A DNA stretch of 34,098 nt from Anaerolineales bacterium (GTDB lineage Bacteria > Chloroflexota > Anaerolineae > Anaerolineales > Villigracilaceae), in assembly GCA_014379595.1 (NCBI GenBank), contig JACMLM010000065.1, positions 1-34,098 of the forward strand, in the 5' to 3' direction. Shown here in pieces: positions 8,426 through 28,699 of this stretch (position 1 is the stretch's first letter; every line of letters starts with the position of its first letter). The notes under the pieces are model-generated. The model saw only the letters and a list, made by a program, of their open reading frames with translations. It was not told where the DNA came from and did no database searches. The translations under genes were made by a program, and so were the position numbers.

Positions 8426-9124
8426 TTACTCGCTTGCTTCAGCTTCTTCAGTAGTTGTTGTTTCACTTGCTGCATCTTCGGTTGCTTCAACTTCCGCTGC
8501 TTCGGTTTCGGTCGTTGCAGTTTCGATTGCTTCGACTTCGGTAGCTACATCTTCGGTTGCTTCCACTGCTTCGGTTTCGGTCGTGGCAACTTCGGTTGCT
8601 TCAACTTCTGGAGTTGAAGGTTGTTCCGCGGCTGCTTTCATAGACTTGGGTACTTTTGGAGCATCAGCAACTTCGGGAACTTCAAATCCGAGAGCACGGA
8701 GTTTCTTCTTAGCCGCAGTCAATGAAGACTGACCAAAGCCAGCGACTTCCAACATGGCGGCATTGCCTTCGCCAAGTTTGGCAAGGATCTGACCAAAGCT
8801 TAAAATACCGGCTTTCTTGAGTGCATCTGTTGCGCGAGGGCTAAGCTCAAGATCATCCACTGAACGATCAGGAGAGGTTAATGACTCTTCCTTGGTCTTC
8901 AGTTGTTCGACATAAGTCTGGCGGGCAGAAAGTTTCTTATAGAAGCGATCTACCTGACCTTCAACATCAAGCAATCTCGCAGATTCACCAGTAAAGAATG
9001 GATGACACTTCGAGCATACGTCAATGCGTAATTCTTTTTTGGTGGAAGTGGTGATCCACGTGGTACCGCAGGAAGCGCAAGTTACTTTTGCATCAAAAAC
9101 TGTAGGATGAATTTCTGCTCTCAT
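8426..9124 (-). CDS. rpmE: ribosomal protein L31 fused to an RNAP alpha-CTD-like domain and acidic tail
   Basis: A 232-aa protein, about three times normal L31 length. Residues 1-70 are zinc-type L31: [11 protein letters not shown]16/C19 and C37/C40, then [19 protein letters not shown]. Residues about 88-147 match the C-terminal domain of RNA polymerase alpha: [19 protein letters not shown], then [14 protein letters not shown]. At the position of E. coli alpha R265 there is an Arg (R97). The N268 and K298 positions appear changed to D100 and S133, by alignment from memory. From about residue 150 the chain is repetitive Glu/Ala/Thr, strongly acidic. The gene begins 1 nt after rpmA and shares its promoter. 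L31 sits on the large subunit near the central bridge; what the added domain does is unknown. Confidence 0.88.
8475..8612 (-). repeat. degenerate tandem repeats encoding the L31 acidic tail
   Basis: The DNA repeats 12-15 bp phrases built from CTTCGGTTGCTTC and CTTCGGTTTCGGTCGT (plus strand). A larger unit of about 70 bp is present about twice, encoding [10 protein letters not shown]-like and TATTETEA-like phrases. Such tracts change length by slippage. Confidence 0.7.
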
Positions 9125-17613: not shown

Positions 17614-18024
17614 ATGCCATATTCAAAACTTTATTATCATTTTATTTGGGGCACAAAGAATCGATTGCCATTGATTGATTCTTCTATAGAAGCCGAACTA
17701 TATCGAGTCATTGCCGCAAAGGTGCAGGACATGCAGGGATTCGTTCATGCTATCGGCGGGATGGAAGATCATACTCACCTTGCAGTATCCATTCCGCCAA
17801 AACTTGCGCCTGCAAAATTTATCGGGGATGTAAAAGGGAATAGTTCACATTACGTCAATCATGTTATCAAGCCTGATTTTGAATTCTATTGGCAAGCCGA
17901 ATATGGAGTGTTATCTTTTGGTGAAAGAGATCTCTCTTCGGTGGTACGATATATTCATAACCAGAAACAACATCACGCGGATGGGACGTTGATCGCGGCA
18001 ATGGAGCGAATGGATGAGCAATAA
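17614..18024 (+). CDS. REP-associated / IS200-type Y1 transposase
   Basis: A 136-aa single-stranded-DNA transposase of the TnpA/RAYT superfamily. The metal-binding HUH-like motif is seen as EDHTHLAVSI (H53, H55). The catalytic tyrosine is Y113 in VVRYIHNQKQHH. The N-terminus YSKLYYHFIWGTKNRLPLI is family-typical, and length suggests an intact gene. RAYT proteins cut and join single-stranded REP palindromes. A group of four hairpins starts 33 nt after the stop. GGAAAG lies about 10 nt before the ATG. There is no TnpB. It lies between a GT-C gene and the UvrD helicase gene. Confidence 0.88.
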   Translation: MPYSKLYYHFIWGTKNRLPLIDSSIEAELYRVIAAKVQDMQGFVHAIGGMEDHTHLAVSIPPKLAPAKFIGDVKGNSSHYVNHVIKPDFEFYWQAEYGVLSFGERDLSSVVRYIHNQKQHHADGTLIAAMERMDEQ

Positions 18025-18232: not shown

Positions 18233-20545
18233 ATGACACCTTCCTTCACCCCTCGCCCCTCTCAACAAAACATCCTCCGCTACAATGGCGGGCGGTTGGG
18301 CATTGCCGCTGTGCCTGGTGCTGGCAAGACGCACATTCTTTCTGCACTGGCGGCGCAGATCATTCACGACAACCAATTGCAAGATGGACAGGAAGTTCTC
18401 ATCGTTACGCTCGTCAACTCAGCCGTTGATAATTTTGAAAATCGTATCAAAGGTTTTTTTGATAATAAGATTCAGGCGTTATATAAATATCGTGTGCGCA
18501 CATTGCATGGGCTTGCGCATGATATCGTCCGTGAGAAGCCTTCGCGCGTGGGGCTTGAGGAGCGCTTCAGCATCATTGATGAACGTGAAGCCGCGTTCAT
18601 TCGACGCGAGTCTGTCAATGCATGGCTGGCGTCTCATTCGCTGGATGATTATCTTGACCCTGCACTTGATTCATCAAAACAGGATTGGGTGAGGCGTTCT
18701 CAACTTCCAGATCTCGTGGACTCGCTCGCTTTAGCATTTATTCGTTCAGCAAAAGACCGCCTCTTGACTCCCGAAAGCCTGCGACAAAAACTAGATTCAT
18801 CTTTTGCGCCTCTGCCTCTCGCTGAACTTGGCTATAGCATTTATGCAGACTATCAACGTGCACTCGCCTATCGCGGTGCAGTAGACTTTGACGATTTGAT
18901 TCGTTTAGCATTGACTCTACTCCAAAGCGACGAAGAATTTTTAGAACGACTTCGTTTTCGCTATCCATTCATCTTGGAAGATGAAGCGCAAGATTCAAGT
19001 CAGTCACAGAAAAATATTCTTGAGTTATTAAGTGGTGAAAATGGAAATTGGGTTCGCGTGGGTGATCCAAACCAGGCCATCTTTGAAACATTTACCACTG
19101 CTGACCCCGACCTATTGCGCGATTTCATTCAAAGCAATCCGAATGCAGATATGCCAGAATCGGGAAGGTCACAGCCTGCGGTGATCGCGCTGGCAAATCA
19201 TCTGATTGACTGGGTGATGCAATCACATCCCGAACCGCAGGTGCAGACTGCATTATCACTTCCATATATTCAGCCTGTGCCAGAAGGATACGAGCCAGTG
19301 AATCCGCCAGATAACCCAGAGGGGATTAAATTTATCAGCAAGAAGTACACAGCGGAAGAAGAATTGGAAGCAGTGGTTAAATCTGTGAAGAGTCATTTGG
19401 ATTCATTTGCTGAGGATGAACAAAAACCAACTATTGCAATACTTGTCCCTCGTAATCAACGCGGCGTGGATGTTATTAATGCGCTCAAGGCAAAAAATGT
19501 CGAAGTGATTGAGTTGATTTCATCTACATCGAATACACGGGCAGCGGCAGGGTCATTGAATTATCTGCTTTCCTATTTAGCAGACCCGCAATCATCGCGA
19601 AAATTATCGAAGGCGTATGAAGTCTTTCGTCGTGATTGGCGCACGGGCATGTCATTGCGAGACGGTGATCTCCCGTCGAAGCAATCTCCCACAGATGAGG
19701 ATAATGCCAATAATGAGGGGATTGCTTCGTCGCGAAGTGCGCTCCTCGCAACGACATCAAACTTAATTCGACGCGTACATGAAGTGGAAAATTTCATCGC
19801 GCCGAGTCAAACCAATGACTGGCTGGCAGCTTTGGTTGAGGCTGAATCGTTCGAAGTCATCGAAGAGTTAAGAGAATTTCGAGTCAATGTCCAGCGCTGG
19901 TTGAATGCAGTCACACTTCCGATTGATCAATTAGTGCTCACGCTGGCACAGGATGTTTTTACAGAAGCACCTGACCTGGCGTTGGCGCATAAACTTGCGT
20001 TGGTGCTGCGCAAAGCGGCAGATGACCATAACGAATGGCGCCTGCCTGAGTTGACATCGGAGCTGGCGGTGATCGCAAAAAATGAACGGCGCTTCATTGG
20101 ATTCTCAGAAGATGACTCTGGCTTTGACCCTGAACGGCATCGCGGCAAAGTGGTGGTAACGACGATGCACCGCGCCAAAGGTTTGGAGTGGGATCGCGTG
20201 TATTTGATGAGCGTGAATAATTATGATTTTCCGTCGGGCATGCCGAATGATAGATTCATTTCGGAGAAGTGGTTTGTGCGACAGGGATTAAATTTGGAAG
20301 CCGAGGCACTGGCACAGTTGACCGCGTTGGAGTCGAACAGTGAATATGATTGGTATGAAGAAGGCAAAGCCACGTTCACTTCACGGCTCGGATATGTAAA
20401 GGAACGCCTGCGTTTGTTTTATGTAGGCATCACACGCGCGAAAAAAGATTTGATTGTCACTTGGAATTCAGGTCGCCAGGGTGATGCGACTCCGAGTCTG
20501 GCGATGTCTGAGTTGATGGGGTGGTGGGAGGAAAATACAAGATAA
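18233..20545 (+). CDS. UvrD/Rep-type SF1A DNA helicase
   Basis: A 770-aa ATP-dependent 3'-5' DNA helicase with every SF1A motif. Q-motif RPSQQNIL, Walker A VPGAGKTH (27-34), Ia LVNSAVDNF, Ib RTLHGLAHDI, II EDEAQDSS, III VGDPNQAIF, IV ESGRSQPAVI, V TTMHRAKGLEWD and VI FYVGITRAKKDL are all visible. No nuclease domain follows. The protein is longer than the motifs need because a palindromic repeat encodes residues about 473-508 (DGDLPSKQSPTDED ... SRSALLATT). No Shine-Dalgarno precedes the ATG at 18233. The last 36 bp are present again, degraded, at 21547-21581. It is probably a partner or paralogue of the degenerate helicase at 11534. Confidence 0.92.
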   Translation: MTPSFTPRPSQQNILRYNGGRLGIAAVPGAGKTHILSALAAQIIHDNQLQDGQEVLIVTLVNSAVDNFENRIKGFFDNKIQALYKYRVRTLHGLAHDIVREKPSRVGLEERFSIIDEREAAFIRRESVNAWLASHSLDDYLDPALDSSKQDWVRRSQLPDLVDSLALAFIRSAKDRLLTPESLRQKLDSSFAPLPLAELGYSIYADYQRALAYRGAVDFDDLIRLALTLLQSDEEFLERLRFRYPFILEDEAQDSSQSQKNILELLSGENGNWVRVGDPNQAIFETFTTADPDLLRDFIQSNPNADMPESGRSQPAVIALANHLIDWVMQSHPEPQVQTALSLPYIQPVPEGYEPVNPPDNPEGIKFISKKYTAEEELEAVVKSVKSHLDSFAEDEQKPTIAILVPRNQRGVDVINALKAKNVEVIELISSTSNTRAAAGSLNYLLSYLADPQSSRKLSKAYEVFRRDWRTGMSLRDGDLPSKQSPTDEDNANNEGIASSRSALLATTSNLIRRVHEVENFIAPSQTNDWLAALVEAESFEVIEELREFRVNVQRWLNAVTLPIDQLVLTLAQDVFTEAPDLALAHKLALVLRKAADDHNEWRLPELTSELAVIAKNERRFIGFSEDDSGFDPERHRGKVVVTTMHRAKGLEWDRVYLMSVNNYDFPSGMPNDRFISEKWFVRQGLNLEAEALAQLTALESNSEYDWYEEGKATFTSRLGYVKERLRLFYVGITRAKKDLIVTWNSGRQGDATPSLAMSELMGWWEENTR
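19649..19757. repeat. dispersed palindromic element inside the helicase reading frame
   Basis: Termini ATGTCATTGCGAG (19649-19661) and CTCGCAACGACAT (19745-19757) are inverted with one mismatch. An inner pair, GAAGCAATCTCCC (19678-19690) and GGGATTGCTTC (19718-19728), makes a second stem. This matches a repeat type I recall in several Chloroflexota genomes (CATTGCGAG ... GCAATGAC). The helicase frame stays open across it. Confidence 0.8.
20492..20527 (+). repeat. direct repeat, copy 1 (helicase 3' end)
   Basis: The coding end of the UvrD helicase shares CCGAGTCTGGCGA (13 bp) and TTGATGGGGTGGTGG (15 bp) with 21547-21581. The 7-8 bp between these blocks differs. This copy is intact and in frame (PSLAMSELMGWW). 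Confidence 0.85.
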
Positions 20546-22786: not shown

Positions 22787-23173
22787 CGATTATTATACAA
22801 TGAGAAGTAAAGATTCAGGCGATAATTTGTGGTCTTTGACATTGGTGCCTGAATTGCATTGCTTCAGTTACAAGTGCAAAGAAATAGGAGCCTTCGGGGT
22901 GAGGGGCGAGTGCGGTTGACCTCTCCCCAGCCATCTCCAAAAGAAGAGGGAGTCTGTCGTCAAATGAAAAACAGTCTCAGGCGTAATGTCAACGACCCCA
23001 CCCGACCTCACCTGCACTGCACCAAACGCAGTGCGGTGCAAGTGTCGGTCACCCTCCCCCGCGAAGCGTCCGTAAGAAAGATTACGCAAGTTATTCAATT
23101 TATATAATTCGGATTTGGAGACACAATACCCGAGCATAGCGAGTGGTAGGGAAATGGTCTCGGGATGTGACGA
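22787..23173. other. 387-bp gene-free region of decayed repeats
   Basis: No convincing gene. The left half has phrases of a common dispersed repeat (GGTGAGGGGCGAG ... CCTCTCCCCAGCC). A hairpin GCACTGC-ACCAAAC-GCAGTGC lies at 23014-23034. Base composition changes here from AT-rich to GC-richer, marking the edge of the 20.5-22.8 kb stretch. Confidence 0.5.
22966..22997 (+). repeat. decayed copy of the nested-hairpin repeat
   Basis: The stretch AACAGTCTCAGGCG then TAATGTCAACGACC matches the short copy at 27452-27486 (GGTCTC ... TAATGTCAACAAGACC) in the same orientation, but the outer right arm is lost. A further possible half-copy (AAATGGTCTCGGGATGTGAC) lies at 23153-23172. Confidence 0.5.
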
Positions 23174-24337
23174 CTAATGCGCGTGGGTCAGCGTTTGGGT
23201 TGTAAGGGAAGCGATCTGAGCTTTGTCAACTTCAATGGGCGGGGAGACAAACGCGGTTCCATCCACAAGGTCTTGTTGAATGCGTTGACGGAGTTGCTCC
23301 GTCCATTTGTCGGTTTGCGGGGCTAAAATCAGTTTCGAGACCAAGTCGTTCATCTTACAGAGCAACCATGCTCCCTGTGCCTTCCCCCACAAATAAATCA
23401 AACGCGCCCCATCCCTGGTGGGTTCTAACTTGAAGGTACCGTTATAGGTGATCCTGAGAGGGGTTGTAGCGTTTGTTGTATATTGCTCGAAGGGGCGCCA
23501 ATCCAAAATGAGCATCCTGGATGATTGCATCTCTCCGTGGTAGCAAAAGTAAACCGAATCAACCGCTGTACGTCCCTGTGTTTGGTTATGAAGTTCCAGT
23601 TTGGTCGCTCCAAATAAGATGGCGCGATATTCAGGCTTCGTCAAATACTCCCACAAGATGGACGGAGGGATGGGGAACTCATATTTGAGAATAACCAGCG
23701 CCTCTTCAGGTCGGACCTCGATCCTGACTCTGTCCTTCAAGCGTTCCCACACTTGATGTAGATCATGCACGTACATTTGCACTTCCCCCACATCCGCGAA
23801 GGTCTCTCGATGCGGGGTCAGGCTGTTTTGGAAATCTGCCAGCCCCAACGCATCCATCACCGACTGGGTAAAAGCGGCGTATGCCTTGAAGCCCGTTTTT
23901 TCCTTGATGTGATTCTTCGCCAGGCGATGCACTAAGTTGATATCATTCCCCACCAATTTAGTGAAGCTTCCGAATTTCTGGGTCATATACGAACCGAAAT
24001 GAACAAAGAACTTCAAGTCGAGATTGGGGAGGTTTCGACAGGCATTGCAGGTGCAGGTGGTGTTGATCACCATCAGTTCCAGCGCCTTACGGAAGGACGC
24101 ATACGTGCACTCGATCATATCCAGCAGGCTTTGTCCTTGCAAGAAACCGCCAGCAGGCGCGTACGAAAAAACAGCATCACCTTCCAAGTCGGAGATAACC
24201 AAGGGAGATTTTGTGTGTTGAATTAATAAGTTCAACAGGGCAGACAGGCTGTCGCGCGCGTGTTCCAGCTCCGACTCGTTGAGATACTTTGAATAGCCAG
24301 TAATATCAGAAATGATCAAGAAGCCTTGTTGTGTCAT
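23174..24337 (-). CDS. DUF2652 cyclase-like domain fused to SRPBCC domain
   Basis: A 387-aa two-domain protein. Residues 1-205 are DUF2652, which looks like a class III nucleotidyl cyclase fold: IISDITGYSKYL (D11), DLEGDAVFSY (D54) and GNDINLVHRLAKNH. A conserved cysteine motif CTCNAC (C95, C97, C100) sits before FFVHFGSY. Residues about 215-370 are an SRPBCC/polyketide-cyclase-like ligand-binding domain (FPIPPSILWEYLTKPEYRAI ... YNGTFKLEPTRDGARLIYLW). Both potential metal-binding Asps are kept, so nucleotide binding is possible, but cyclase activity is unproven. The start at ATG 24337 is preferred; the open extension to 24388 (MRPVRDRF) is encoded by a hairpin repeat. A DUF2652-only paralogue lies at 28018. 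Confidence 0.8.
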   Translation of the reverse strand: MTQQGFLIISDITGYSKYLNESELEHARDSLSALLNLLIQHTKSPLVISDLEGDAVFSYAPAGGFLQGQSLLDMIECTYASFRKALELMVINTTCTCNACRNLPNLDLKFFVHFGSYMTQKFGSFTKLVGNDINLVHRLAKNHIKEKTGFKAYAAFTQSVMDALGLADFQNSLTPHRETFADVGEVQMYVHDLHQVWERLKDRVRIEVRPEEALVILKYEFPIPPSILWEYLTKPEYRAILFGATKLELHNQTQGRTAVDSVYFCYHGEMQSSRMLILDWRPFEQYTTNATTPLRITYNGTFKLEPTRDGARLIYLWGKAQGAWLLCKMNDLVSKLILAPQTDKWTEQLRQRIQQDLVDGTAFVSPPIEVDKAQIASLTTQTLTHAH

Positions 24338-24364
24338 CCCGCCGTTTATATCATAGGTTAATGG

Positions 24365-24414
24365 AAAACGGTCTCGGACCGGTCTCAATGCGACCGTGTC
24401 AACGAGACCGTTTT
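24365..24414 (+). repeat. nested-hairpin repeat, copy 1
   Basis: Outer arms AAAACGGTCTC (24365-24375) and GAGACCGTTTT (24404-24414) are perfect; an inner stem GGTC/GACC lies between. TTTTATTTTC overlaps the end. It sits between divergent genes, so here it does not follow a plus-strand gene. Confidence 0.85.
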
Positions 24415-24473
24415 ATTTTCTATAGTTTTATCCACATGCTATACTTCACAAAATCAAATTTAAAGGAAGTCTC

Positions 24474-25751
24474 ATGTCCGATTTCTCAACCCCTCTGTCA
24501 CATGCAGTAGATGATGCCCGGGGCGACCTGGTCGCTTTTTTGCAAAAAATGGTGCAGACCTCGAGCTTGCCGGATCACGAACATGAAGTACAAAACCTGA
24601 TTGCAGAAAAATTGAGGGCGATGGGTCTTGAAGTTGATATCGTACCTTCCCATTTTGAAGACTTGCGCGCTCATCCTGCTTTCAACGACGATGGGTTTTC
24701 AGCGACCGAGCGCATCAATGTGATCGGTCGCTGGCGCGGAACACAAACAGGTGAAGGTCGTTCGCTCATTCTCAATGGGCATGTGGATGTGGTTCCAGCA
24801 GGCGACCCCGCTCTATGGGATGATTCTCCCTGGAGCGCTGCGATCCATAATGGGCTAATGTATGGACGCGGTTCCTGTGATATGAAGTCAGGGTTATGCG
24901 CGGGTATCTTCGCTGTGGATGTATTGCAGCGACTCGGTTTTCACCCCGCGCGCGATGTGTTGATAGAAAGCGTGATCGGCGAAGAGTCGGGCGGCATTGG
25001 CACACTGACCTCGATCGTCAAAGGCTACACAGCAGATGCAGTCATCCTGCTCGAGCCCACACGCCTTGAAATTTGTCCTGTCCAATCGGGTGCGCTCACT
25101 TTTCGATTAACAGTACCTGGTCGTTCCATCCATGCGGCCATGAAGCCATACGGCGTCAGTGCTATCGAAAAATTTGCCCTGCTTTTACAGGCCATTAATA
25201 CACTGGAATCTGAGCGGCATCAGGCTTTCAAACACCCGCTTTATGAAGATCCGAACAATATCGCGCCGATCAATATCGGCACGATCCATGGCGGGGAATG
25301 GCATTCCACCGTTCCTGAAGAAGTTGTCGCGGAGGGACGCATGGGTGTTTTGCCGGGCGAATCCAACGAAGCTGCGAGAAATGCGTTCGAAGGCGCAATC
25401 CAACGCGCCGCATCTTCTGATCCCTGGCTGCGGGAACATCCGCCGCGCGTGGAATGGTTCGAAGGGCAATTTGAATCAGGCGAGACTTCGCTGGAGCATC
25501 CATTGATTCAAAAACTCAGTGCCAGTCATCAACAAGTCATCGGAACTCCGCCGATTTTGCGCGGCGTACCGTATGGCTCCGATATGCGTTTATTCACCAA
25601 TCATGCAAAGATCGCAGCCACGCATTATGGTCCCGGCGATGTGGGCATGGCTCATGCAGCCAATGAGTTTGTTCCTCTTGATGAAGTAATCACTGTTACG
25701 AAGGTAGTGGCGCACATGCTGGTGGAATGGTGCGGAGGCGATATTGCATAA
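24474..25751 (+). CDS. M20 family metallopeptidase/deacylase (ArgE/DapE-like)
   Basis: A 425-aa dinuclear zinc amidohydrolase. Metal ligands lie in ILNGHVDVVPAGD (His), YGRGSCDMKSG (bridging Asp), IGEESGG (catalytic Glu plus ligand Glu), LLEPT and, near the end, GMAHAANEFVPLDE (His). The dimerisation/lid domain sits between (SGALTFRLTVPGRSIHAAMK). This fits acetylornithine deacetylase/succinyl-diaminopimelate desuccinylase-like enzymes; the exact acylated substrate cannot be told. AAGGAAG lies 8 nt before the ATG. No arginine or lysine biosynthesis gene is near. Nested-hairpin repeats lie on both sides. Confidence 0.9.
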   Translation: MSDFSTPLSHAVDDARGDLVAFLQKMVQTSSLPDHEHEVQNLIAEKLRAMGLEVDIVPSHFEDLRAHPAFNDDGFSATERINVIGRWRGTQTGEGRSLILNGHVDVVPAGDPALWDDSPWSAAIHNGLMYGRGSCDMKSGLCAGIFAVDVLQRLGFHPARDVLIESVIGEESGGIGTLTSIVKGYTADAVILLEPTRLEICPVQSGALTFRLTVPGRSIHAAMKPYGVSAIEKFALLLQAINTLESERHQAFKHPLYEDPNNIAPINIGTIHGGEWHSTVPEEVVAEGRMGVLPGESNEAARNAFEGAIQRAASSDPWLREHPPRVEWFEGQFESGETSLEHPLIQKLSASHQQVIGTPPILRGVPYGSDMRLFTNHAKIAATHYGPGDVGMAHAANEFVPLDEVITVTKVVAHMLVEWCGGDIA

Positions 25752-25798
25752 AAACTTCTACTCATCTGACTAATGAGTTCGTTTGGTTTTAATTAGAA

Positions 25799-25856
25799 AT
25801 ATGAAACGGCCTCGGATCGATCTCAAAGAGATCATGCCAGCGAGGCCGTTTCATAT
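25799..25856 (+). repeat. nested-hairpin repeat, copy 2
   Basis: Perfect 16-bp outer arms ATATGAAACGGCCTCG / CGAGGCCGTTTCATAT. The inner stem is GATCTC-AAA-GAGATC. Compared with the other copies, paired changes (GGTCTC to GGCCTC, GAGACC to GAGGCC) keep the stem. No T-run follows. It lies 48 nt after the M20 stop. Confidence 0.85.
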
Positions 25857-25926
25857 GAGCCGGAATTGAATTTGTAAAATAAGTGTGCTACAGTATTGAA
25901 AACATTTTGGAAGCAGGAGTCTCCTT

Positions 25927-26463
25927 ATGGAAATATCCATTCGTGTGGCTGTGATGGACGATGTGCCGACATTGAAGGAATTGATACCTTTATCCGCACG
26001 GGAGTTGAGCAAGGGATATTACGCTCCGGAACAAGTAGAGAGTGCCATCCAATATATCTTTGGTGTCGATACGCAGCTACTTAGGGATAAAACATATTAT
26101 GTCGCCGAGGCAAATGGTGAAATTGTCGGCTGCGGCGGCTGGAGCAAAAGAAAAACTCTCTATGGTGGCGACCAGATGAAGGAGGAGGCAGATCCGCTGC
26201 TTGACCCGAAAGAAGATGCAGGACGCATCCGCGCATTTTTTATTCATCCAAATTGGGCGCGTAAAGGCATTGGCCGCCGAATCATCCAGGCCTGTGAAGA
26301 TGCAGCCGTTGCTGACGGCTTCACCAAAATGGAGTTGGGCGCCACATTACCTGGTGAGCCACTCTATGCCGCAATGGGATATGAAGTGACCGATCGTTTC
26401 GAAATTCTCATGGGGAACGGAACGGTATTACCTTGCGCACACATGAAAAAGGAGCTGACATAA
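25927..26463 (+). CDS. GNAT family N-acetyltransferase
   Basis: A 178-aa acetyltransferase that uses acetyl-CoA. Motif A is IRAFFIHPNWARKGIGRRII, with the R112-K-G-I-G116 pyrophosphate loop. The preceding strands (YYVAEANGEIVGCGGW) and following helix (IIQACEDAAVADG) fit the fold, as does the late strand (LGATLPGEPLYAAMGYEV). The acceptor is unknown. AGGAG lies 7-8 nt before the ATG. The stop abuts the next ATG (TAAATG), so it is an operon with the cysteine-synthase-like gene. Confidence 0.92.
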   Translation: MEISIRVAVMDDVPTLKELIPLSARELSKGYYAPEQVESAIQYIFGVDTQLLRDKTYYVAEANGEIVGCGGWSKRKTLYGGDQMKEEADPLLDPKEDAGRIRAFFIHPNWARKGIGRRIIQACEDAAVADGFTKMELGATLPGEPLYAAMGYEVTDRFEILMGNGTVLPCAHMKKELT

Positions 26464-27438
26464 ATGGACAACCCGCGACAAGACTCACTGCTCGACTCTG
26501 TGTTGGGGGCAATAGGAAATACTCCGCTTGTGGAACTTTCCCGCATCACTCGTGGACTTGAAGGCCGCATCCTCGCCAAATTGGAATATCTCAACCCAGG
26601 CTTTTCCAAGAAAGACCGCATCGCTTTACAAATGATCGAAGAGGCTGAAGCAGATGGAAAGCTCAAGCCAGGTCAAACCGTTGTTGAATTGACCAGCGGC
26701 AATACAGGCACAGGCTTATCCATTGTATGTGCAGTAAAAGGATATCCATTCGTGGCAGTAATGTCCAAGGGAAATTCAACAGAACGCGCGCGTATGATGA
26801 AAGCTTTCGGTGCAGAGGTATTTCTTGTTGACCAACTGCCTGATTCAAAACCCGGTCAAGTGTCTGGTGGAGATTTGGCATTGGTCGAAGAAGCCGCTCA
26901 ACGTATTGTCAAAGAACGAAATGCCTTTCGTGCTGATCAATTCCGTTTGCCTAGCAGTTCACGTGCTCATTATTTACATACAGTTCCAGAGATATTGAGT
27001 CAAGCGGGTACAAAGATTGACGCGTTTTGTGACTTTGCCGGCACAGGCAGTTCTTTTGGAGGTTGTGCTGCCGCGTTCAAAGATCATGACTCAACTATCG
27101 AATGCTATATCGTCGAGCCAGCAGACGCATCAATTCTTTCGGGGAAACCTGTTACTAATCCCAATCATCGCATTCAGGGCGGCGGATATTCCATGCCGGA
27201 GTTATCTTTGATAGATAAAAAACATATTGATGGCTATCTTCAAGTGACAGATGAAGAAGCAATGGAAGTTGCACGGCGCTTGGCAAGCGAAGAAGGAATC
27301 TTCGCAGGCTTTTCATCAGGTGCAAATATTGCCGCGGCGATGCACTTGTTGAAAACAACTCACAAGGGGAAAACCATTGCCGTCTTGCTGAGTGATTCAG
27401 GCTTGAAATATCTCAGCACAGATTTGTGGCCTTCATAA
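26464..27438 (+). CDS. cysteine synthase family PLP enzyme
   Basis: A 324-aa fold-type II PLP enzyme. It starts with GAIGNTPLVELSRI. The PLP lysine is K50 in NPGFSKKDR, where CysK has NPxxSxKDR. The substrate loop is ELTSGNTGTGLS, the phosphate-binding loop FAGTGSSFGG, and the pyridine-nitrogen Ser lies in LLSDSGLKYLS. The core agrees with O-acetylserine sulfhydrylase or cystathionine beta-synthase; residues about 125-145 are less standard, so another amine or thiol substrate is possible. AAGGAG within the end of the GNAT gene serves the start. An acetyltransferase coupled to this enzyme recalls the serine acetylation-sulfhydrylation pair, but the GNAT is not CysE-like. Confidence 0.88.
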   Translation: MDNPRQDSLLDSVLGAIGNTPLVELSRITRGLEGRILAKLEYLNPGFSKKDRIALQMIEEAEADGKLKPGQTVVELTSGNTGTGLSIVCAVKGYPFVAVMSKGNSTERARMMKAFGAEVFLVDQLPDSKPGQVSGGDLALVEEAAQRIVKERNAFRADQFRLPSSSRAHYLHTVPEILSQAGTKIDAFCDFAGTGSSFGGCAAAFKDHDSTIECYIVEPADASILSGKPVTNPNHRIQGGGYSMPELSLIDKKHIDGYLQVTDEEAMEVARRLASEEGIFAGFSSGANIAAAMHLLKTTHKGKTIAVLLSDSGLKYLSTDLWPS

Positions 27439-27451
27439 ATCTTGAGAATAA

Positions 27452-27486
27452 AAATGGTCTCGTACATAATGTCAACAAGACCATTT
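27452..27486 (+). repeat. nested-hairpin repeat, copy 3 (short form)
   Basis: Arms AAATGGTCT (27452-27460) and AGACCATTT (27478-27486) enclose CGTACATAATGTCAACA. The inner hairpin is missing, but the TGTCAAC phrase before the right arm is kept. ATTTTTATG follows, so it can terminate the upstream operon, whose stop is 13 nt away. Confidence 0.8.
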
Positions 27487-27530
27487 ATTTTTATGGCGAG
27501 GATAGTAAAATCACCTGAGGAGACTCTTAC

Positions 27531-27869
27531 ATGTCAACTAAAACGGCTTCCATCATCTCTTCCGTGGTTACTGCTCTTCTGGTTCTGGTGATTGTGATCA
27601 TTTTCGGATTCGGGGGAATTGTCCTGCTTAACGGCTTTATGGACGCGAGCGCTGCAGTGTACACGGGGTTCACCTGTTTGGGCATCACACTGATTCTTTG
27701 TCCTATCCTTGCAGGAGTCCTTGCCAGAACATTCATCGCGAAATTCAATTGGAACAACATTCTTTCCATCTTCGTTTCGGTCCTGGTTACAACGCTCCTT
27801 GGCTTTGGAATGGGAGTGGCGTCAACTTTCATCATGGCTATTGTGGCTGAAACCATGTGGCGTTCGTAG
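27531..27869 (+). CDS. small membrane protein, three TM segments
   Basis: A 112-aa protein with three or four hydrophobic helices: ISSVVTALLVLVIVIIFGFG, GFTCLGITLILCPILAGVLA and LSIFVSVLVTTLLGFGMGVA, followed by FIMAIVAETMW. No known family is recognised. The Gly/Ala-rich helices and short loops could fit a small transporter subunit or an integral stress protein. GAGGAG lies about 9 nt before the ATG, so translation is likely. It is alone between repeat copies 3 and 4. Confidence 0.75.
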   Translation: MSTKTASIISSVVTALLVLVIVIIFGFGGIVLLNGFMDASAAVYTGFTCLGITLILCPILAGVLARTFIAKFNWNNILSIFVSVLVTTLLGFGMGVASTFIMAIVAETMWRS

Positions 27870-27893
27870 AGAGCTTGATCGATACAAATTTAT

Positions 27894-27943
27894 AAACGGT
27901 CTCTGATCGGTCTCATTGAGATGGTGTCAACGAGACCGTTTTT
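27894..27943 (+). repeat. nested-hairpin repeat, copy 4
   Basis: Outer arms AAACGGTCTC (27894-27903) and GAGACCGTTT (27932-27941), then further T's. The inner stem is TCTC-ATT-GAGA. The GTGTCAAC phrase before the right arm is kept. It begins 25 nt after the membrane protein gene. Confidence 0.87.
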
Positions 27944-28017
27944 GTTATGAATTGATAAATCCTGCTGCATCTGAAATCAGTTAGAATTCAGGCTATTCTT
28001 ATAGATTTAGGAGTTAT

Positions 28018-28629
28018 ATGGAACGCAAAGCGCAGGCAGGCTATTTAGTACTTGCTGATATTTCAGGGTACACATCTTTTATCGCCAAAACTGAAATTGA
28101 GCACGCCGAGAAAGCCATCTCCATTTTGTTGGAAGATATCATCGAAAAATTGGATGATGTGTTGACCATCGTAAAACTGGAGGGTGATGCCGTCTTTGCA
28201 TACATCTCCGACGATCAACTGTCCAACGGCAATGCCTTGCTTGAATTGCTTGACAACACCTATCTTATCTTTCGAGATTCAGCCAAAGCCCTGCACAGTC
28301 AGGCAACTTGTCCATGCAAGGCGTGTATAGCCATTCCCACACTCGATCTAAAGTTTTTTGTCCATCATGGAGAATATATTGTCCAGCAAGTGGCGGGCAT
28401 CAGAGATCTGTTGGGGAATGATGTCACTCTGATCCACAGGCTTGCGAAAAACCATGTTACCGAGTCCACGGGTTGGAATGGGTATGTTCTGTTTACAGGC
28501 AATTGTCTCGAGCAGATGCAGGCAGATAAGAAACCTTTTGTTCAGCAGGCTGAAACCTACGAGCATCTCGGCAACGTGGACACGTACGTTATGAACCTGC
28601 ATGTCCGCTATGATGAAATGAAAAAGTAA
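28018..28629 (+). CDS. DUF2652 family protein, cyclase-like
   Basis: A 203-aa single-domain DUF2652 protein, paralogous to the N-terminal half of the 23174-24337 product. Shared blocks are LVLADISGYTSF (D14), VKLEGDAVFAY (D57), ATCPCKAC (C98, C100, C103), LKFFVHHGEY and GNDVTLIHRLAKNHV. The order matches class III adenylyl/guanylyl cyclases, with both metal-binding Asp positions present. The cysteine cluster is a family trait and could bind a metal or sense redox state. Activity is unproven. TTAGGAG lies 5 nt before the ATG. It stands alone between repeat copies 4 and 5, next to a diguanylate cyclase gene. Confidence 0.82.
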   Translation: MERKAQAGYLVLADISGYTSFIAKTEIEHAEKAISILLEDIIEKLDDVLTIVKLEGDAVFAYISDDQLSNGNALLELLDNTYLIFRDSAKALHSQATCPCKACIAIPTLDLKFFVHHGEYIVQQVAGIRDLLGNDVTLIHRLAKNHVTESTGWNGYVLFTGNCLEQMQADKKPFVQQAETYEHLGNVDTYVMNLHVRYDEMKK

Positions 28630-28647
28630 CCGCTGGCTTTATTAATC

Positions 28648-28699
28648 AAAAACGGTCTCGGACCGGTCTCTTTGAGATTGGGTCAACGGGGCCGTTTTT
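28648..28699 (+). repeat. nested-hairpin repeat, copy 5
   Basis: Left arm AAAAACGGTCTC pairs with right arm GGGGCCGTTTTT through two G-U wobbles, so the stem is kept in RNA. The inner stem is TCTC-TTT-GAGA and GGTCAAC precedes the right arm. A long T-run follows. It starts 18 nt after the DUF2652 stop. Confidence 0.87.

What the first reader, a model, noticed from the sequence alone, without database searches (positions are those of the whole stretch)
22966..28699. Array of same-orientation nested hairpins separating one- or two-gene modules
Seen: a ~50-nt element recurs at 24365, 25799, 27452, 27894 and 28648, with decayed copies near 22966 and perhaps 23153. Each has an outer AAACGGTCTC/GAGACCGTTT-type stem, usually an inner TCTC-GAGA stem, and a conserved asymmetric TGTCAAC phrase before the right arm. 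All are in one orientation, and between them lie accessory genes: DUF2652-SRPBCC, M20 peptidase, GNAT+CysK-like, a membrane protein, DUF2652. Copy 2 has paired substitutions and copy 5 has G-U pairs, so structure is kept, probably as RNA. Copy 1 lies between divergent genes, so termination alone does not explain it. Inference: a cassette-like array with a novel recombination site, or a mobile terminator family.
Basis: partly seen in the sequence, partly recalled or inferred. Interest (0 to 1): 0.85.

Follow-up and report, generated by a model that had tools for sequence, protein, structure and literature searches.

The report
Oriented hairpins bounding swappable gene modules
In one family of uncultured Chloroflexota, a short one-way-facing hairpin that looks like a transcription stop signal marks the borders of small gene modules that differ between close relatives at a chromosomal hotspot, and no recombinase gene is consistently found beside it.

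Summary
Five copies (24365, 25803, 27451, 27893, 28649) face one way, with left-half remnants at 22966 and 23150; no comparable match was found elsewhere in the 4.47 Mb genome. A model from 61 copies finds the element in 57 of 152 genomes of the same family and rarely outside it. Of 111 listed sites, 67 lie 15 nt to 9.9 kb downstream of one UvrD-type helicase gene (window 18233-20545), 64 of them on its strand.

Gene content around copies turns over. Of 106 copies, 78 share a flank with a copy in another genome, yet 0 of 124 such pairs share both flanks (33 of 212 for other gaps in the hotspot). Seven module contents recur between two copies in two or more genomes; 1 of 20 pairs shares a neighbour. 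In two close genome pairs homology resumes at the hairpin's edge. Copies sit just after stop codons with A and T tracts, like bidirectional terminators; relatives without them often have ordinary terminators there.

Best reading: a terminator-like hairpin that also bounds exchangeable modules. It fails the tested defining features of integron attC, dif-module and REP sites. The joining enzyme is unknown, and terminator activity is inferred.

The parts
24365..24414 (+). hairpin copy 1 (long form), between divergent DUF2652 and M20 peptidase genes
25803..25852 (+). hairpin copy 2 (long form, compensatory changes)
27451..27487 (+). hairpin copy 3 (short form, the commoner type in relatives)
27893..27942 (+). 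hairpin copy 4 (long form)
28649..28698 (+). hairpin copy 5 (long form, G-U pairs)
22966..22993 (+). left-half remnant of the hairpin; right arm lost
23150..23168 (+). weaker left-half remnant, just after the stop codon of the 23174-24337 gene; a similar stretch follows the homologous gene in L078
23174..24337 (-). module gene, DUF2652 protein; in G139 (L078) its homologue also has a full hairpin on the same side (left flank 83% over 200 nt, up to the hairpin)
24474..25751 (+). module gene, M20 peptidase
25927..26463 (+). module gene, GNAT acetyltransferase
26464..27438 (+). module gene, PALP / cysteine-synthase-like
27531..27869 (+). module gene, 112 aa, no Pfam match
28018..28629 (+). module gene, DUF2652; a homologue lies between two hairpins in G010 (L131) with other neighbours
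18233..20545 (+). F1, UvrD-type helicase gene upstream of the array; same-strand reference for hairpin orientation across the family

Best explanation
The element (called E) is a 41-54 nt hairpin with conserved arms AAAACGGTCTCG / CGAGACCGTTTT and usually an unpaired dinucleotide on the 3' side. It does two things. First, inferred: it acts as a bidirectional intrinsic terminator that insulates small accessory gene modules. Second, shown by comparison: it marks the boundary at which modules are exchanged in a hotspot downstream of a UvrD-type helicase gene in one Chloroflexota family. All or nearly all copies near the helicase keep one orientation, so copies multiplied with the modules in direct orientation and not by random insertion. 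The joining reaction is inferred and unresolved: host recombination at the hairpin (short-homology joining, RecA, or a host recombinase encoded elsewhere) between an E on incoming DNA and an E in the array.
For: Linkage and polarity: 67 of 111 listed sites are 15 nt to 9.9 kb downstream of F1, 64 of 67 on its strand. Boundary role: 78 of 106 copies share a flank with a copy in another genome, 0 of 124 pairs share both, versus 33 of 212 for non-E gaps in the hotspot and 30 of 139 elsewhere (with 300 and 500 nt flanks 2 of 143 and 4 of 199). Recurrent modules: 7 contents lie between two E copies in two or more genomes; 1 of 20 pairs shares a neighbour. Close pairs: G135/G136 differ completely between the end of F1 and an E, then match at 95.2% over 4.5 kb from E start +2; G100/G139 resume at E start -2/-3 at 92.9%. 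A chimeric E in G114 joins the left flank of one G150 copy to the right flank of another. Terminator shape: copies hug 3' ends (median 22 nt after the stop in 37 tandem cases; 34 convergent, 11 divergent of 96; background gaps 41 convergent and 75 divergent of 342) and have 6.8 and 6.4 T in the 10 nt after the stem on the two strands.
Against: No 3'-end data, so termination is inferred. E-less relatives carry some of the same gene families in the same hotspot. At gene-family level, adjacency across E (12 of 38) is not clearly below non-E gaps (16 of 35). Twelve of 104 copies show a conserved junction in some other genome. Copies in one array share a median of only 12 identical nt (113 pairs), short for RecA (threshold recalled). 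In the L069/L075 pair the same two genes lie with and without E, which looks like terminator replacement. Pairs are not independent.
Confidence: 0.5

Rival explanations
1. E is only a lineage-specific bidirectional terminator sitting between genes of a hypervariable hotspot; it plays no part in the exchange, which happens by ordinary homologous recombination in conserved flanks.
For: Placement at 3' ends and A/T tracts; ordinary terminators of unrelated sequence at such places in E-less relatives; single E copies just after sucB in L077 and L079; same gene pair with and without E in L069/L075; adjacency test not different.
Against: Fixed orientation whichever neighbour is being terminated (64 of 67; 14 of 96 copies serve a gene on the opposite strand); shared stem sequence across unrelated genes; stronger breakpoint signal than other gaps in the same hotspot (0 of 124 versus 33 of 212), though for convergent non-E gaps the control is small (2 of 18).
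Confidence: 0.28
2. E is a site-specific recombination site worked by a recombinase encoded elsewhere, for example a host Xer-type enzyme, giving an integrase-less cassette array comparable to dif modules.
For: Same-orientation array, modules bounded at both ends, chimeric E, toxin-antitoxin-rich cargo; the own genome has just two tyrosine recombinase genes, both unlinked; E copies in an array share little identity, so a structure-reading enzyme would help.
Against: No recombinase consistently linked: nearest PF00589 gene on an array contig is about 76 kb away among 17 genomes, one serine recombinase pair 5 kb away in 1 of 14. E has no dif-like arms (10.99 of 22 matches versus 10.95 shuffled). 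No conserved core was shown.
Confidence: 0.16
3. E is a REP-like mobile hairpin moved by an HUH (Y1) transposase such as the IS200-like gene at window 17614-18024.
For: An IS200/IS605-type gene lies upstream of F1 in the window; 13 of 19 genomes with a close orthologue have E.
Against: Close orthologues are missing from 44 of 57 E-positive genomes; REP end tags GTAG/CGTC in 2 of 96 copies, 5.8 expected; copies few, not scattered, one orientation.
Confidence: 0.05

Closest known systems
Integron cassette arrays and CALIN clusters (attC sites)
   Same: Chromosomal arrays of small modules, many toxin-antitoxin genes, direct-oriented imperfect hairpin sites near gene 3' ends.
   Different: E is usually 41 nt (attC 57-142 nt per PMC2727003), has no R boxes (0 of 96 with both), modules point either way, and no integrase gene is linked.
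dif (pdif) modules of Acinetobacter plasmids
   Same: Modules bounded by short sites, toxin-antitoxin cargo, no dedicated recombinase in the module (PMC13141974, passages).
   Different: dif modules need alternating site orientation and XerC/XerD arms; E copies face one way and lack those arms.
REP / RAYT repeats
   Same: Short extragenic palindromes, at gene ends, sometimes near IS200-like transposases.
   Different: No GTAG/CGTC tag, few copies confined mostly to one locus, single orientation.
Bidirectional intrinsic terminators
   Same: GC stem flanked by A and T tracts, close to stop codons, favoured between convergent genes.
   Different: Same stem sequence and same orientation next to unrelated genes; marks synteny breaks.

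Membership tests
Integron attC / CALIN | terminal R boxes (RYYYAAC ... GTTRRRY; motif letters recalled) | tested here: not met
   left box 2 of 96, right box 0 of 96, both 0 of 96
Integron attC / CALIN | site length 57-142 nt | tested here: not met
   E is mostly 41-42 nt, long form 53-55 nt in the model span; length range from PMC2727003, passages
Integron attC / CALIN | integron integrase beside the array (not required for CALIN) | tested here: not met
   no PF00589 gene within about 76 kb of an array E on the same contig in 17 genomes
dif / pdif modules | XerC and XerD 11-bp arms around a 6-bp spacer | tested here: not met
   best match 10.99 of 22 on average versus 10.95 for shuffled E, 96 copies; arm sequences from PMC13141974 Table 1 passage
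dif / pdif modules | alternating site orientation | tested here: not met
   64 of 67 sites near F1 share its strand
REP / RAYT repeats | GTAG or CGTC tag at one end | tested here: not met
   2 of 96 copies, 5.8 expected from shuffled feet
REP / RAYT repeats | associated RAYT / IS200-type gene | tested here: inconclusive
   IS200-type gene near the array in 5 of 14 genomes; close orthologue in 13 of 57 E-positive genomes
Bidirectional intrinsic terminator | GC-rich stem followed by T tract on both strands | tested here: met
   mean 6.8 and 6.4 T in 10 nt after the stem, 96 copies; stem kept by covariation
Bidirectional intrinsic terminator | transcripts end at the element | not testable with these tools
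   needs 3'-end mapping
Site-specific recombination site | recombination catalysed at a fixed point in E | not testable with these tools
   one chimeric E and edge-aligned breaks only

The most novel reading that the evidence does not exclude
A cassette system without a linked integrase: E is a new class of oriented hairpin site, read as folded DNA by a recombinase encoded elsewhere, and it doubles as the terminator of every module, so capturing a module also insulates it in either gene orientation.
Probability: 0.17. Interest if true: 0.87.

Novelty: new variant of a known kind. Interest (0 to 1): 0.62.

Why it matters
If right, it shows that module exchange much like that of integrons can be organised around terminator-like hairpins with no dedicated recombinase beside them, in a lineage that is abundant in wastewater. 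It would link insulation of acquired genes to their exchange and gives a concrete locus where gene uptake can be followed.

Tried and rejected
Independent mobile element in random orientation: rejected on orientation. IS200-like transposase as the required mobiliser: rejected on distribution. Linked tyrosine or serine recombinase: not found, except one serine recombinase pair about 5 kb from an array in G100. attC, dif and REP membership: rejected on tested features. Rfam family at gathering scores: none in the window. Replication-strand bias by GC skew: uninformative (31 helicase loci, 17 positive; 20 other loci, 8 positive). Stronger likeness of copies within one genome: weak (0.747 versus 0.724 mean identity, 6 of 500 label shuffles as high). 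Co-inheritance of left or right E with a module by E similarity: not resolvable because copies are too alike. Gene-family adjacency test: no clear difference. A wider homology-block scan found 45 of 527 block ends within 60 nt of an E; most ends lie inside the helicase gene, so I did not use it as a test (its output was cut). Viral contigs: no exact pattern match.

Papers: I saw only passages of PMC2727003, PMC13141974 and PMC3733652 and search listings otherwise. None of those listings described this element; that is a limited search of an open-access library, not proof of novelty.

Full report
What was checked. Two left-half remnants precede them. A model from these five (R1) and a second from 61 copies (R2) find only these five strong matches in the own genome; the next best are 28.6 bits with R1 and 20.2 bits with R2. 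The window is the whole 34,098-base contig C9.

What the element is. The 61-copy alignment gives nearly invariant arms AAAACGGTCTCG and CGAGACCGTTTT, an inner stem of three pairs, and unpaired bases on the 3' side. In 54 of 96 copies that fit a strict pattern the extra dinucleotide is AA, CG, CA, AC or AG. Fifteen pairs are 92.9% formed with eight two-sided changes. Most relatives carry a 41-42 nt form; the window has four long forms and one short.

Where it occurs. R2 at E <= 1e-5 hits 57 of 152 genomes of the family, in 8 of 26 genera; R1 at E <= 0.01 hit 63 of 152. Across 396 genomes of the class 17 had a hit at E <= 1e-4, 12 of them in this family. Viral contigs gave none.

Linkage to one locus. 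The helicase F1 (window 18233-20545; PF00580; below every NCBIfam cut-off) has matches in 134 of 152 genomes. Of 111 E sites listed, 67 in 34 genomes lie 15 nt to 9.9 kb downstream of it on the same contig, 64 on its strand; three lie elsewhere on an F1 contig and 41 on other contigs, some of them contig ends. The three opposite-strand cases score 48.1 against 42.7, 41.6 against 41.0 and 37.5 against 25.0 on the two strands, so two are close calls. To the right, several loci reach aspS and gat genes, named from their sequences by eye. So the array sits in a fixed chromosomal hotspot. It is also found at other places, such as after sucB in L077 and L079 (gene names by eye).

Genes between copies. 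Fifty-six E-to-E modules hold 44 different contents. Among 82 of 84 module proteins, Pfam finds PIN toxins (7, plus 2 PIN_3), MazE-type antitoxins (4), F420H2-dependent quinone reductases (5), DUF3891 (4), DUF2652 (3), GNAT and methyltransferases. Genes point either way (55 with the array, 29 against). Seven contents recur in two or more genomes, and of 20 cross-genome pairs only one, the closely related G150/G114, shares a neighbour. The window's DUF2652 module between copies 4 and 5 recurs between two hairpins in G010 with other neighbours; the hairpin on the G010 right side is weak and its strand ambiguous (28.7 on both strands).

E as a boundary. With 200-nt flanks, 78 of 106 copies match a copy in another genome on one side, and none of 124 pairs match on both. 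For non-E gaps in the hotspot the figure is 33 of 212 pairs and elsewhere 30 of 139 (Fisher p about 1e-7, pairs not independent). With 300 and 500 nt it is 2 of 143 and 4 of 199 against 44 of 348 and 65 of 526. For convergent non-E gaps the control is thin (2 of 18). When E-less sites are allowed, 12 of 104 copies have a conserved junction somewhere.

Close genome pairs. G135 and G136: F1 is 87.7% identical, the next 2-3 kb are unrelated, and homology resumes two bases into an E at 95.2% over 4.5 kb. G100 and G139: 96% upstream, 91.6% in part of F1, unrelated content, then 92.9% from 2-3 bases before an E. G020 and G016 at sucB: homology runs to 9 nt before E in one, while the other has a 736-nt stretch with two small genes before E. 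G150 and G114: a gene block has moved, and one E in G114 joins the left flank of one G150 copy to the right flank of another, with its centre inverted.

Terminator features. Of 96 copies, 37 follow a same-direction gene (median 22 nt after the stop), 34 lie between convergent genes, 14 follow a gene on the other strand and 11 lie between divergent genes; 342 background gaps have 41 convergent and 75 divergent. Both strands have T tracts (6.8 and 6.4 of 10). Nine loci without E hold some of the same gene families, and several of their convergent gaps have ordinary terminators of unrelated sequence; one, L117, keeps a right-half E.

Mechanism. Shown: location, orientation, boundary role, one chimera. 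Inferred: bidirectional termination, and joining at E. Not shown: any enzyme. Tyrosine recombinases are no closer than about 76 kb on array contigs in 17 genomes; a serine recombinase pair is near one array only; the IS200-like gene is near 5 of 14. Copies in one array share a median of 12 identical bases, 4 of 113 pairs share 25 or more, which makes plain RecA exchange between copies inefficient if the usual threshold, recalled, applies. I keep the enzyme open.

Results against. The adjacency test (12 of 38 versus 16 of 35), the presence of the same gene families without E, the gene pair with and without E, and weak within-genome likeness all favour a plainer terminator-in-a-hotspot reading, which I hold at 0.28.

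Noticed in passing
window 19649-19757: A palindromic repeat lies in frame inside the helicase gene (about aa 472-508). Matching motifs occur at a similar place in the helicase gene of 11 of 38 loci (window included), like protein-coding palindromic elements.
   Followed up: partly
window 17614-18024: IS200/IS605-type Y1 transposase of constant length just upstream of the helicase; close orthologues in 19 of 152 genomes.
   Followed up: partly
L059 3640-5268, L060 2983-4611, L072 (gene before the first hairpin): Reverse-transcriptase-like proteins (YVDD motif in the first two, by eye; no domain scan succeeded) next to the helicase; SIR2-like and other defence-like genes lie there in other relatives, also by eye.
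   Followed up: no
L051, L057, L063, L078, L083: An upstream extension of about 85 nt with two further hairpins (CAYGAACTGAGGCAGGGATTTATCCCGCC) at a fixed distance before some copies.
   Followed up: partly
window 22966; L050 8228; L053 near oriented 11640: Left-half copies whose right side continues into similar CCCCACCCG-type sequence in different genomes.
   Followed up: no
all copies, arms: The arm core GGTCTC equals the BsaI/Eco31I recognition site (recalled), which matters for cloning.
   Followed up: no
window 8431-8613: Imperfect 15-nt repeats inside the coding region 8426-9124.
   Followed up: no
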